A DNA stretch of 16,208 nucleotides from Deltaproteobacteria bacterium RBG_13_61_14 (lineage in GTDB: Bacteria; RBG-13-61-14): contig MGQK01000125.1 of assembly GCA_001797815.1 (NCBI GenBank), forward strand, positions 1 through 16,208, read 5' to 3'. Within the stretch, counting starts at the first letter, position 1; each line of letters begins with the position of its first letter. A program made the position numbers and the translations under genes. Below the pieces are notes generated by a model. That model ran no database searches. It was not told the origin of the DNA and was given only the letters and a program-made list of their open reading frames with translations. Shown piece after piece: positions 4,941 to 8,736 of the stretch.

Positions 4941-4964
4941 GAATTAAGTATGGTGTCCTCCGAA
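4941..4964 (+). repeat. Left 24-bp flanking repeat
   Basis: Begins GAATTAAGTATGGTGTCC and ends in CCGAA; matches the reverse complement of 7798-7821 at 23 of 24 positions (T against A at position 19). Confidence 0.7.
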
Positions 4965-5011: not shown

Positions 5012-5596
5012 TTATTCCTTAATGTAATTCTTTTGAAGTTCAAACCTAAGCTTTGTTAATTCCTCTCTGAGGCAACTATCTAATTGAAAATTATCAGGAT
5101 TTGTATTAAATCGAATTTCATCTGCTCTCGAGCACGCTCTTTGAACTGCCTCATTTAATATCTTGTTAGCTCCATTCATGGCATGTATTGCAGCAAATAT
5201 TTCTGGCAAAAATATCTCTCCCTCTTCATACATTAATATCATTTCAATGAATAATTTAATGCTCTGTTTTCCAATTTTATCATTATTTAAGTCATAATAT
5301 TTCACCTCATTTTTACTTGATTTATCTTCATTATTAATTGAAATAGAACCTTTCCCATGAATATCGTAATGACTTTCATTTTCTACCTCGGAGACAGAAC
5401 TGGGGGAAATAGTATCGAAGTCACCTGAATAGGCTACAGGTAAATCTAGACCATTTTCAGTTATAATACCTTTTGAAATTCTTTTTATAACAGATTTAAG
5501 ATCATTAGAAGATTTCAAATAGTAATATTTAGTGATATACGCAGTCACAATTATTGCTATAGCAGCTACAAGGATATTTATGGTAATCTCTAGCAT
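5012..5596 (-). CDS. Small membrane-anchored protein of unknown function in the island
   Basis: A 194-residue protein I do not recognise. A single N-terminal transmembrane helix (about residues 4-27, rich in Ile/Ala/Val) is followed by positively charged residues (K28, K34), suggesting an inner-membrane anchor with a soluble C-terminal part in the cytoplasm. The middle (about 50-105) is polar, Ser/Asn/Asp-rich and probably disordered. The C-terminal part (about 110-190) looks helical, with a hydrophobic stretch SIKLFIEMILMYEEGEIFLP. GGAGGGG lies 10 nt before the ATG at 5596. It is the last of three same-strand AT-rich genes, 129 bp after the DUF262 gene, with a repeat in the gap. It may be the membrane component of the same system or an unrelated passenger. 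Confidence 0.65.
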   Translation of the reverse strand: MLEITINILVAAIAIIVTAYITKYYYLKSSNDLKSVIKRISKGIITENGLDLPVAYSGDFDTISPSSVSEVENESHYDIHGKGSISINNEDKSSKNEVKYYDLNNDKIGKQSIKLFIEMILMYEEGEIFLPEIFAAIHAMNGANKILNEAVQRACSRADEIRFNTNPDNFQLDSCLREELTKLRFELQKNYIKE

Positions 5597-5628
5597 ACCA
5601 CTTCAACCCCTCCGGTTAATCTCCTTGG

Positions 5629-5685
5629 CTACCGACTACGGACTACTTGTTTTAAGTGTTAACTGTAAAGTGAAGCTCTGACCCC
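5629..5685. repeat. Heptamer tract and CTGACCCC repeat between two island genes
   Basis: Heptamers CTACCGA, CTACGGA, CTACTTG occupy 5629-5649. A CTCTGACCCC core (5676-5685) follows. Both lie in the 129-bp gap between the DUF262 gene and the membrane-protein gene, so repeats have invaded the island as well as its edges. Confidence 0.55.
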
Positions 5686-5725
5686 AATGCCTCAATGCCT
5701 TTTCGAATTCCCATATCTTCTGAAT

Positions 5726-6784
5726 CTAAGTTTTAATTCTATCAATATATTTATTAAATTCATCAAGAAGAATTTCTACTCGTCTAATATGGCTTTTTTC
5801 ATCATTTGTGCTCCTGTTTAATAACTCAAATTCATTTAATACGCCTCCTCCTGTCTTGGGATAATTTTCAGTTTTTTTCAATTGCTTTCTTCTTTGTTTG
5901 AAATTTACAAGAAATTCTCTTACCAATAAATCTTTTTGTGGCTTTATGGAACGCACAAACCAATAATAAACCGGAAATAATCCCGCAGAATTAAGCAATT
6001 TATCTCGTGGCAAAAATATTTCACACATTCTCTCAAAACTATCAATTACTCTTCTCGTGGCCAATTCTAAAGTTCCCTTGTCCTGTGATCTTACTTTTTT
6101 AACAAAATCATCTAAGTTTTTTCTCTTTGTTTCCTTGGGGCCATCAGAATATTCGAACATCAATATTTTTGTCGCTGCATTTTTGTCATCTCCTCTTAAG
6201 GTAGGGAATTTTATGCAGCTATTAAATATTTCATGTTTAACTAATTCCCTTATTATACCTGGAATTGGACCTCTCATAGCATTTCTTATTTCGGCACCAG
6301 TTAATGGTTTACTTCGATTAAGCCTAATGAAAAGTTCTTCTATTCTCTTTTCATCATCTGTAATTACATGCATTACACTCAAATTGTAACTATCGAATTT
6401 ATCAGCTATAATAGGATGATTCTTACGTAGATCTTGATAGCTAAGGCTTTTTAAAGAAAGAGAACTATTATCTAAATAAACAAAATTATCATCTAGAGTA
6501 ATGTTGCCATCATAGAAATCAAAGATTGCCTCAAATCTTTGTTTGCCATCTATAATAGCATAATTGAGTCTTTTTCTATTAAGCTTAGACTTGCTAAATG
6601 TAAAATCAGCAATATAAATTTTAGGGATATCGTATCCATTGAGTATAGAATCTATCAGAAAAGCTTTGTCAGTAATAGACCATAAGCGGCCATGTCTTTG
6701 ATAGGGTGGGTCCATATCTATTTGATCTTTCATTGTCCTCCACCAATTCAAGCTCTTCGAGCCAAATGCTTCAACCTTGAACAT
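5726..6784 (-). CDS. DUF262 family protein (GmrSD N-terminal / ParB-like NTPase domain)
   Basis: A 352-residue DUF262 (PF03235-type) protein. Key motifs: PPYQR at 26-30, W35 and K40, then LIDSILNGYDIPKIY (43-57), IDGKQR (78-83), and FIRLNRSKPLTGAEIRNA (152-169). IDGKQR corresponds to the DGQQR nucleotide-handling motif of GmrS, SspE and BrxU, with K for the first Q. The usual partner nuclease domain DUF1524 (HNH) was not seen in this protein or the window. The ATG at 6784 is preferred over a TTG at 6796: GGAG sits 6 nt upstream, and the stop of the FRG gene (6786) is one base away, giving translational coupling. Codons are AT-rich, unlike the flanking genes. I infer a role in phage or plasmid defence, with the FRG protein as partner. 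Confidence 0.85.
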   Translation of the reverse strand: MFKVEAFGSKSLNWWRTMKDQIDMDPPYQRHGRLWSITDKAFLIDSILNGYDIPKIYIADFTFSKSKLNRKRLNYAIIDGKQRFEAIFDFYDGNITLDDNFVYLDNSSLSLKSLSYQDLRKNHPIIADKFDSYNLSVMHVITDDEKRIEELFIRLNRSKPLTGAEIRNAMRGPIPGIIRELVKHEIFNSCIKFPTLRGDDKNAATKILMFEYSDGPKETKRKNLDDFVKKVRSQDKGTLELATRRVIDSFERMCEIFLPRDKLLNSAGLFPVYYWFVRSIKPQKDLLVREFLVNFKQRRKQLKKTENYPKTGGGVLNEFELLNRSTNDEKSHIRRVEILLDEFNKYIDRIKT

Positions 6785-6785
6785 G

Positions 6786-7601
6786 TTAATCTCCAAATTT
6801 GAATTCTCGCATAATTTCTCTCGCCAATCCTTCTAGATCTGGAAATACTACAGAATCTGTGATGCCATAAAATGAAAGCGCCTCATAAATCTTGTGTATG
6901 GCTTGATATTTAATATGCATCTTAATCAGACAACCTTCAGAAATATACGCTTTTTCAAAGATATCTTCCATAGGTTTAGTTGATTTTCCAAAAATTAAAA
7001 ATGTTCCTCTTTGTGCAACTATTCTTTGGCTGTTGTAGGTTCCATATACTGCTAATGGTTCTTCCTTCATTTCTGTGCACTTTACAGGTGGCTTATATGA
7101 ACTTAAATTAGCATCAAATGGTGTAAGTATGCTTTCTTTGAAACTTTTTAAGTTAATTGCAGATTTGTTCCAACTCTGTGGGTCTAATATCCACACTGCA
7201 GCATCCTTCTTAAAGCTTCTACTTCTGATTATATTATGTCTAATATGCAAAGCAACGGAGAAATACAAAGCGATTAGTGGGCTTTCTGTCCAGTCCAATA
7301 ATCTGGTTGGGACACCATAATGTTGCATAAAAAACATTAGATCCCATTGGTCTTCTATTGGACGAGAAGTAAATGCAATGCTCCTTTGTTTGAATCGAGC
7401 AATAAGATTATTTTCAAGTTCTATAAAATCTTCTATGGACCTGCATTTACTATGTTTGTATAGGCCGGGCAGCAAAGGTTTATCAGATTCTGTAGATCCT
7501 CTGTACCAAAGAGGCGTCTTTCGTTTTTTTCTCTGCGTTTCTATGAAATCTAAAAATTGCTGAAATGACACTATTTTCTTTTCTACAAGCCTAGTCATCA
7601 T
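6786..7601 (-). CDS. FRG domain-containing protein
   Basis: A 271-residue protein spanned almost wholly by an FRG domain (PF08867-type). Diagnostic residues: YRG at 33-35 in PLWYRGSTES, the core QHYGVPTRLLDWTESPLIAL at 93-112, then R193 with QRGTF at 197-201, and the terminal VVFPDLEGLAREI pattern. No signal peptide or membrane segment, so it is cytoplasmic. The biochemical activity of FRG domains is not something I can assign from sequence; the conserved R/Q/H/D positions suggest an enzyme. It is the first of three minus-strand genes, one base from the DUF262 start. M1 and M2 are adjacent ATGs; only a weak purine run (AAAGAGA) precedes them. Composition is AT-rich, unlike the rest of the window. 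Confidence 0.88.
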   Translation of the reverse strand: MMTRLVEKKIVSFQQFLDFIETQRKKRKTPLWYRGSTESDKPLLPGLYKHSKCRSIEDFIELENNLIARFKQRSIAFTSRPIEDQWDLMFFMQHYGVPTRLLDWTESPLIALYFSVALHIRHNIIRSRSFKKDAAVWILDPQSWNKSAINLKSFKESILTPFDANLSSYKPPVKCTEMKEEPLAVYGTYNSQRIVAQRGTFLIFGKSTKPMEDIFEKAYISEGCLIKMHIKYQAIHKIYEALSFYGITDSVVFPDLEGLAREIMREFKFGD

Positions 7602-7797: not shown

Positions 7798-7821
7798 TTC
7801 GGTGGACACCATACTTAATTC
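7798..7821 (-). repeat. Right 24-bp flanking repeat
   Basis: Inverted partner of 4941-4964 with one mismatch. It marks the right edge of the AT-rich island; GC-rich sequence resumes right after it. Confidence 0.7.
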
Positions 7822-7935: not shown

Positions 7936-8354
7936 GCCAAAGTCAATAGAAAAATTAGCCGCGAAAAAGCACGAAGGATCGAGGCCAAAGTCAAGAGGAA
8001 GATTATCCACGAAGGACACGAAGGGCACAAAGGGCTAAAGAGCTAAGTCCAGGAAAGAAGTCACCACGAAGGACACGAAGAACACGAAGGGCTGAAAAGC
8101 TAAGTCCAGGAAAGAAGTTTCCACGAAGGACACAAGGGCTTAAAACTCAAGTCCAGGAAGAGATTATCCACGAAGGACACGAAGAACACGAAGGGCTGAA
8201 AAGCTAAGTCCAGGAAAGAAGTTTCCACGAAGGACACAAGGGCTTAAAACTCAAGTCCAGGAAGAAATTATCCACGAAGGACACGAAGGGCTAAAGAGCT
8301 AAGTCCAGGAAAGAAGTTTCCACGAAGGACACGAAGGACACGAAGGGCAGGAGG
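7936..8354. repeat. Tandem repeat array, 47/57-bp units
   Basis: Units begin CCACGAAGGACAC and most end in AAGTCCAGGAA-like sequence. Starts: 8007 (57 bp), 8064 (57), 8121 (47), 8168 (57), 8225 (47), 8272 (48) and 8320 (partial); two diverged 48-bp-spaced units (7936, 7984) lie before them. The 57+47 pair at 8064-8167 is repeated almost exactly at 8168-8271, a 104-bp higher-order duplication. The inter-core sequences are themselves repeated, so this is not a CRISPR array. No open frame runs through it with coding character. Confidence 0.85.
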
Positions 8355-8736
8355 GTTAACTTGGGGCCTGACCTAATGTTGTTCAGTTAAGAAAGGATTT
8401 TCACGCCAAGACGCAAAGGCGAAAAAATTTTAAACGATTGGCGGCTTAAAATCCTTTGCGACTAAGTCCTTCGATTCATAAGTTCGATGACGAACTTATT
8501 TACTCAGGACTTAGTGCTGAGTAAGCAAATAAGCCTTTGCGAGAAAATAAATACGTCATTGTATTTGCGAATCGAAGCACTAAGCCGGCCGACTTGAGCC
8601 GCAGAAGAGGATGAGTTCCCAAGGCGCCAAGCCTCTTGGCTTTGTCAGCCTTTGCAACTTTGCGGCTTTGCGTGAGAATTCCTCCGTCTGAGATCTCCCT
8701 TAAGTGAACAGAATTAGGGTCTGACCCCTTGTTAAG
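8355..8736. mobile_element. 382-bp non-coding element with ~37-bp terminal inverted repeats
   Basis: The left end (8355-8391, starting GTTAACTTGGGGCCTGACC) and the reverse complement of the right end (8699-8736, starting CTTAACAAGGGGTCAGACC) are similar over about 37 bp. Inside is a second inverted pair, CACGCCAAGACGCAAAG (8402-8418) with CTTTGCGGCTTTGCGTG (8658-8674), 15 of 17 matching. Further hairpins: AAAGGATTTT (8392-8401) with AAAATCCTTT (8448-8457), a 9-bp stem at 8478-8499, and a 7-bp stem at 8501-8523. The whole can fold into one long branched hairpin. There is no gene inside. Confidence 0.7.

What the first reader, a model, noticed from the sequence alone, without database searches (positions are those of the whole stretch)
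5012..7601. FRG + DUF262 + membrane protein: candidate undescribed defence cassette
Seen: three minus-strand AT-rich genes inside GC-rich DNA. The FRG and DUF262 genes are one base apart with the second ribosome site inside the end of the first, so they are co-translated. Known: DUF262 domains with DGQQR-like motifs occur in GmrS, SspE and BrxU restriction-type defence proteins, normally linked to a DUF1524 nuclease. Inference: here DUF262 stands without DUF1524 and is paired with an FRG protein, so FRG may be the effector. I cannot match this set to a named system.
Basis: partly seen in the sequence, partly recalled or inferred. Interest (0 to 1): 0.75.

Follow-up and report, generated by a model that had tools for sequence, protein, structure and literature searches.

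The report
Two-gene FRG–DUF262 phage-defence module
Two tightly coupled bacterial genes, one resembling the sensor half of DNA-modification-sensing restriction enzymes and one resembling NAD-using ADP-ribosyltransferases, travel together on plasmids, prophages and bacterial chromosomes and look like an anti-phage system that nobody appears to have named, in which the usual DNA-cutting part is replaced by a different kind of effector.

Summary
On the minus strand an FRG gene (7601-6786) is followed after one base (TAA-c-ATG, GGAG inside the end of FRG) by a DUF262 gene (6784-5726) that has no DUF1524 nuclease. The pairing is no accident. All 20 other close relatives of this DUF262 with DNA upstream (19 distinct: a Hymenobacter plasmid, an Ignavibacteriaceae MAG, two more genomes of its phylum, prophage/viral contigs) have FRG directly upstream; none of 41 more distant DUF262 genes does. 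The two proteins diverge in step (Mantel r 0.93), and the paired DUF262s form one clade.

The predicted DUF262 model matches BrxU, SspE and ParB but ends where BrxU's nuclease begins. The FRG model resembles ADP-ribosyltransferases in all 42 top-ranked rows, at modest scores. Many copies sit beside prophage repressors or integrases and beside known defence genes. C5-cytosine methyltransferases lie near 6/15 viral module loci versus 0/93 controls.

Best reading: a nucleotide-switched DUF262 sensor of DNA (probably its modification state) licensing an ART-fold effector that attacks NAD+ or a cell target. Defence and NAD chemistry are inferred. The membrane gene (5596-5012) is an orphan, not part of the module. 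New variant of the known 'DUF262 sensor + effector' kind.

The parts
6786..7601 (-). FRG-domain protein, 271 aa; putative effector with an ADP-ribosyltransferase-like fold
   Evidence: PF08867 E 5e-23; PADLOC single-gene candidate PDC-S15 E 2e-52; AlphaFold2 pLDDT 90.6, pTM 0.90; the 42 top-ranked structural rows are ADP-ribosyltransferases, Z 4.1-5.6; W32, R34, G35, Q93, H94, R100, D103, W104, R193, Q197 invariant in the clade
5726..6784 (-). DUF262 (GmrSD_N, ParB/Srx-like) protein, 352 aa, without DUF1524; putative sensor/NTP switch
   Evidence: PF03235 E 1e-16; PADLOC NsnA E 3e-28 and PD-T4-2_A E 5e-11; AlphaFold2 pLDDT 89.3; BrxU Z 8.3, SspE Z 8.2, nucleotide-bound ParB Z 7.4, DndI Z 5.4
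6782..6797 (-). junction between the genes: GGAG and stop TAA of FRG, one base (c), then ATG of DUF262 (6784-6782)
   Evidence: sequence; other members have gaps of -4 (commonest) to +16 nt
5012..5596 (-). orphan protein, 194 aa, one N-terminal hydrophobic segment; probably a passenger, not part of the module
   Evidence: no relative in module loci, plasmids, PHROGs, or nearest genomes apart from an E 0.08 fragment; hydropathy
4941..4964 (+). left arm of a 24-nt inverted repeat enclosing all three AT-rich genes; dispersed genome repeat
   Evidence: 96% complementary to 7798-7821; 17-mer core has 35 exact and 20 one-mismatch copies in this genome, 0 in the reversed-pattern control
7798..7821 (-). 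right arm of the same 24-nt inverted repeat

Best explanation
A two-gene, mobile anti-phage module of the 'DUF262 sensor plus separate effector' kind. DUF262 is a ParB/GmrS-like nucleotide-binding protein that inspects DNA, probably its cytosine-modification state. Binding of target DNA turns its NTP switch, as in the 'recognise-hydrolyse-activate' cycle of SspE. The switch acts in trans on the co-translated FRG protein, which holds the place of the DUF1524/HNH nuclease found in GmrSD, BrxU and SspE. FRG has an ADP-ribosyltransferase-like fold and would consume NAD+ or ADP-ribosylate a cell component, stopping phage growth, probably by abortive infection. Shown here by sequence: the conserved pair, its close coupling, co-divergence and mobility, and its association with C5 methyltransferases and defence genes. 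Predicted: the two folds. Inferred: DNA sensing, NTP switching, control of FRG by DUF262, NAD chemistry and the anti-phage outcome.
For: FRG lies directly upstream of all 18 closest DUF262 relatives found by DUF262-only searches with upstream DNA (17 distinct), and of 0/41 more distant ones; two further genomes also have it. Co-divergence r 0.93, permutation p 1e-4, n=18; the FRG-paired DUF262s are one clade, support 0.89. DUF262 model matches BrxU, SspE, ParB-CDP and DndI and lacks the C-terminal nuclease. FRG model matches ADP-ribosyltransferases; FRG as a possible NADase effector is already in the literature (PMC9503650). C5 methyltransferase within ~5 kb in 6/15 viral module loci versus 0/66 FRG-only and 0/27 DUF262-only loci, upstream in one gene run in L011, L015, L016 and L144. 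Prophage repressor upstream or integrase nearby in L011, L017, L020, L021, L142, L143, L144, L146. Known defence genes beside it: type II R-M (L017, L021, L229), type IV REase (L146), PD-Lambda-1 (L009). Other DUF262 genes abut SIR2, RelA/SpoT or AAA-DUF3696 genes, so DUF262 pairs with exchangeable partners.
Against: No phage assay or enzyme data exist for any member. Structural matches of FRG to ADP-ribosyltransferases are weak by score (Foldseek E no better than 0.07; VIA Z up to 5.6, within the range the tool calls middling). The canonical catalytic glutamate was not identified. A C5 methyltransferase is not found near most members, including this one; the genome's only one is about 55 kb away on the same contig. 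Most module loci come from viral contigs, so the prophage setting is partly a sampling effect. In the window the pair lies alone between housekeeping genes, not in a defence island. No null was computed for the non-methyltransferase defence neighbours.
Confidence: 0.5

Rival explanations
1. A toxin-antitoxin or addiction module: FRG is an ADP-ribosyltransferase-like toxin and DUF262 its neutralising partner; it stabilises plasmids and prophages, and any phage defence is secondary.
For: Two overlapping or abutting genes always together, co-diverging, on a plasmid and in prophage cargo sites; ADP-ribosyltransferase-fold toxins in toxin-antitoxin pairs are known, and MbcT-MbcA is among the Foldseek matches.
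Against: The partner is a ~350-aa protein with an intact nucleotide-pocket motif and BrxU/SspE-like architecture, more than a simple antitoxin needs. C5-methyltransferase linkage has no reason under pure addiction.
Confidence: 0.2
2. DUF262 is itself the effector (a ParB/Srx-type nuclease or nucleotide hydrolase) and FRG is the sensor, or the maker of an ADP-ribose-derived signal that switches it on.
For: Nuclease and NTPase activity of ParB/Srx proteins in conflicts is argued in the literature (PMC10853773); some ADP-ribosyltransferase-superfamily enzymes are listed as signal generators (PMC9503650).
Against: The closest characterised relatives (BrxU, SspE) keep the nuclease in a C-terminal domain that is absent here; other DUF262 genes adjoin clear effector types, SIR2 and RelA/SpoT.
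Confidence: 0.12
3. A Menshen-like or PD-T4-2-like system that has lost components or is incomplete in this window.
For: The DUF262 protein matches PADLOC NsnA (E 3e-28) and PD-T4-2_A (E 5e-11).
Against: No match of FRG or the third protein to NsnB, NsnC or PD-T4-2_B; no third gene is conserved across the 18 module loci; the FRG pair is a separate clade present as a pair everywhere.
Confidence: 0.06
4. A prophage or plasmid cargo gene pair with a role unrelated to phage defence, such as lysogeny control or host regulation.
For: Adjacent to CI/S24 repressors and integrases in several loci.
Against: Also in chromosomes beside PD-Lambda-1 or type II R-M and alone in this window; lysogeny-adjacent sites are common places for defence cargo (own knowledge).
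Confidence: 0.08

Closest known systems
GmrSD / BrxU type IV restriction enzymes (DUF262 + DUF1524)
   Same: DUF262 fold with the DGxQR pocket motif and the helical region that follows; model aligned over 285 residues to BrxU 1-426 (Z 8.3, rmsd 13.7 over two domains)
   Different: no DUF1524; a separate FRG gene stands in its place
SspE / DndI phosphorothioate-sensing effectors
   Same: DUF262 sensor/NTPase domain (Z 8.2 and 5.4); the recognise-hydrolyse-activate logic (PMC13251355) is the proposed analogy
   Different: no HNH/DUF1524 nuclease and no sulfur-modification genes; C5-cytosine methyltransferases are the recurring neighbours instead
Menshen (NsnABC)
   Same: DUF262 subunit related to NsnA (E 3e-28) and lacking DUF1524
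   Different: no OLD/AAA partner; the partner is FRG
PD-T4-2
   Same: DUF262 subunit related to PD-T4-2_A (E 5e-11)
   Different: PD-T4-2 is listed with a HEPN domain (PMC10952713); here the partner is FRG
PDC-S15 (PADLOC single-gene FRG candidate)
   Same: the FRG protein is a strong match (E 2e-52)
   Different: PDC-S15 is listed as one gene; here FRG is consistently paired with DUF262
DUF262-SIR2 gene pairs (Hymenobacter sp. YIM 151858-1, Sinorhizobium americanum plasmids)
   Same: DUF262 lying next to a gene of an NAD-consuming family
   Different: different effector fold, reversed gene order, DUF262 outside the FRG-paired clade

Membership tests
FRG domain (Pfam PF08867) | match above the curated cut-off | tested here: met
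   82.2 bits against cut-off 25
DUF262 / GmrSD_N (Pfam PF03235) | match above the curated cut-off and the DGxQR motif | tested here: met
   61.7 bits against 33.2; IDGKQR, with D79 G80 Q82 R83 invariant
GmrSD / BrxU / SspE restriction enzymes | DUF1524 or HNH nuclease in the same or a neighbouring gene | tested here: not met
   no such match in any of the three proteins; the protein ends where BrxU's C-terminal domain begins
Menshen | NsnA + NsnB + NsnC | tested here: not met
   only an NsnA-like match; no NsnB or NsnC match; no conserved third gene in the clade
PD-T4-2 | A (DUF262) plus B subunit | tested here: not met
   A-like match only; neither FRG nor the third protein matches a B model
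PDC-S15 (PADLOC candidate) | FRG protein matching the PDC-S15 models | tested here: met
   PDLC04938 E 2e-52; the candidate status itself is not experimental proof
ADP-ribosyltransferase (ART) superfamily | ART fold | tested here: inconclusive
   the 42 top-ranked VIA rows are ADP-ribosyltransferases but Z is only 4.1-5.6 and no Foldseek match is significant; literature places Frg in this superfamily (PMC9503650)
ADP-ribosyltransferase (ART) superfamily | NAD+-dependent catalysis | not testable with these tools
   needs an enzyme assay; R34 is invariant in all 25 aligned FRGs
anti-phage defence system | protects cells against phage | not testable with these tools
   only indirect: mobility and defence-gene neighbours

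The most novel reading that the evidence does not exclude
A modification-sensing immune system without a nuclease: a GmrS/BrxU/SspE-type DUF262 sensor that reads cytosine modification and licenses, in trans, an FRG enzyme that destroys NAD+ or ADP-ribosylates a host target, giving abortive infection. FRG (in about a tenth of sampled species, biochemically unknown as far as I could find) would thereby get a defined activity and trigger.
Probability: 0.3. Interest if true: 0.8.

Novelty: new variant of a known kind. Interest (0 to 1): 0.6.

Why it matters
FRG is found in 40 of 386 sampled species yet appears to have no proven activity and no solved structure that sequence search can find. This module ties one FRG subfamily to a well-studied sensor type, so its trigger, chemistry and role can be tested with two small genes and two mutants. 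It also suggests that DUF262 is a general sensor unit whose nuclease can be exchanged for NAD-directed or alarmone-type effectors (FRG, SIR2, RelA/SpoT), linking type IV restriction with abortive, NAD-based immunity.

Tried and rejected
Third gene as a component: no relatives in module loci, plasmids, PHROGs or nearest genomes; the 211-aa gene downstream of the Hymenobacter pair is unrelated to it. General FRG-DUF262 adjacency: FRG in general is not next to DUF262; among 60 FRG loci (about 30 distinct places) from 386 genomes only the window itself had it. Relatives by genus or phylum: only three genomes of the phylum are held. Genome-wide scan with the first alignment found one relative because of poor patterns. 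Other plasmids and phages: no further pairs. E. coli: only the methyltransferase part matched, in a different methyltransferase-ATPase-helicase-Vsr locus. PDB by sequence: nothing meaningful for either protein. The source paper for FRG as an ADP-ribosyltransferase effector (10.1128/JB.00365-20) is not held. Promoter and terminator scans gave no more hits than shuffles.

Full report
What is in the window. Three AT-rich minus-strand genes (30-35% GC) lie inside 64% GC DNA. The first is an FRG protein (7601-6786) and the second a DUF262/GmrSD_N protein. The mechanical ORF caller starts DUF262 at a TTG inside FRG, but relatives begin near 'MF.V', so the ATG at 6784-6782 is the likely start. The third gene (5596-5012) encodes a 194-aa protein with one N-terminal hydrophobic segment and no family match.

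Is the pair more than chance? A Hymenobacter plasmid carries both genes in the same order, 41% and 46% identical, sharing one base. I then searched with DUF262 alone, so that FRG could not bias the sample. The result splits cleanly. All 18 DUF262 genes scoring 178 bits or more against the window's, with upstream DNA, have FRG directly upstream on the same strand, most often overlapping by four bases; none of 41 DUF262 genes scoring 124 bits or less does (two of the 18, L144 and L145, are near-duplicates; a few negatives have under 1 kb of upstream DNA). One further close relative, L018, begins at its contig end and cannot be judged. Two more genomes from the phylum of the Ignavibacteriaceae MAG, found with the DUF262 profile, also have the pair. 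FRG and DUF262 identities correlate with r 0.93 over 18 pairs (largest of 10,000 permutations 0.48). The FRG-paired DUF262s form one clade (support 0.89). The module is rare: one of 386 sampled species (the window's own) and three of 395 in one phylum. FRG in general is common (40 of 386) and normally stands without DUF262.

What is conserved. Only FRG and DUF262 are shared by all loci. The window's third gene is an orphan, so the 'three-gene cassette' reduces to a two-gene module.

Folds. The DUF262 model (pLDDT 89) matches BrxU (Z 8.3), SspE (8.2), nucleotide-bound ParB (7.4) and DndI (5.4), and aligns to BrxU residues 1-426 of 580; the C-terminal nuclease part has no counterpart. The FRG model (pLDDT 91, pTM 0.90) has no significant Foldseek match, but the first 42 VIA rows are all ADP-ribosyltransferases, Z 4.1-5.6, including tRNA 2'-phosphotransferase and several secreted enzymes. 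From the starts of the aligned ranges, model residue R34 would fall on the NAD-binding arginine of these enzymes; this is an inference, since residue-level alignments were not returned. R34, H94, R100, D103, R193 and Q197 are invariant in the clade. The Z-scores alone do not prove the superfamily; together with the published assignment of Frg to it (PMC9503650) I regard it as probable.

Setting. In the viral-contig loci the pair follows a phage repressor (L142, L143, L146 CI; L021 S24; L011 S24 with the methyltransferase between) or has an integrase nearby (L017, L020, L144, L146). Known defence genes lie beside it in several loci: Eco29kI-type R-M (L017, L021), MvaI/BcnI-type R-M (L229), a type IV restriction enzyme (L146), PD-Lambda-1 1.2 kb downstream (L009), Vsr (L015). 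A C5-cytosine methyltransferase lies within about 5 kb in 6 of 15 viral module loci, against 0 of 66 FRG-only and 0 of 27 DUF262-only viral loci (Fisher p 1.5e-5 against FRG-only). In L011, L015 and L016 it is the next gene upstream on the same strand, and in L144 it is separated from FRG by one short gene. The methyltransferases fall in two groups, so the association probably arose at least twice.

How it probably works. In SspE, DUF262 recognises marked DNA, hydrolyses GTP and thereby licenses a nuclease domain (PMC13251355); GmrSD and BrxU use DUF262 with DUF1524 against modified cytosine (PMC10952713). Here the DUF262 part is kept, the nuclease is missing, and a co-translated ADP-ribosyltransferase-like protein is always present. 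Linkage to C5 methyltransferases points to cytosine modification as the thing sensed or used as a self mark. Other DUF262 genes adjoin SIR2_2, RelA/SpoT or AAA-DUF3696 genes, which fits DUF262 as a general sensor with exchangeable effectors. Steps shown: gene pairing, close coupling, co-divergence, mobility, methyltransferase linkage. Steps predicted: folds. Steps inferred: sensing, switching, effector chemistry, phage defence.

Comparison with the known. It is not GmrSD/BrxU (no nuclease), not Menshen (no NsnB or NsnC) and not PD-T4-2 (no B subunit). The FRG gene alone falls in PADLOC's single-gene candidate PDC-S15. No paper in the searchable library mentions both 'FRG domain' and DUF262, but that library omits most subscription journals and bioRxiv, so prior naming elsewhere cannot be excluded. 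I rate it a new variant of a known kind.

Weak points. No experiment supports defence or NAD chemistry. Most loci come from viral contigs. Defence neighbours other than the methyltransferases were not tested against a null. In this window the pair is isolated between a peptide-transporter operon and other housekeeping genes.

Noticed in passing
4941-4964 and 7798-7821: A 24-nt inverted repeat (96%) encloses the three AT-rich genes. Its 17-mer core AATTAAGTATGGTGTCC occurs 55 times (35 exact, 20 with one mismatch) in the genome and 0 times in the reversed control; some copies form tight dyads (e.g. L134), others flank unrelated genes. Possible dispersed palindromic element marking insertion sites.
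   Followed up: partly
7973-8389: Array of imperfect ~104-nt direct repeats built on 'CCACGAAGGACACGAAGG' just outside the cassette.
   Followed up: no
L124:230-2175 (-): A DUF262 gene overlaps by 4 nt a gene with a RelA/SpoT alarmone-synthetase domain: another possible DUF262-effector pair.
   Followed up: no
L004:3950-5828, L006:3953-5855, L005:2923-4987: DUF262 genes next to SIR2_2 genes on Hymenobacter, Sinorhizobium and (weak match) Sulfurovum plasmids: DUF262 paired with an NAD-consuming family.
   Followed up: partly
L128:20-2643 (-): DUF262 gene followed by an AAA/DUF3696 gene, a Menshen-like arrangement, in an unrelated genome.
   Followed up: no
L230:2349-5246: A UvrA-like ABC ATPase resembling MADS component mad3 (E 1e-82) lies directly upstream of an FRG-DUF262 pair.
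   Followed up: no
L017:7658-10111: A NACHT-domain protein lies downstream of the FRG-DUF262 pair, beyond an integrase gene.
   Followed up: no
L017, L021, L144: Related (54-58% identical) C5 methyltransferases sit near the module in three loci whose DUF262s belong to different subclades (L017 apart from L021/L144); an Eco29kI-type restriction gene is present in L017 and L021.
   Followed up: partly
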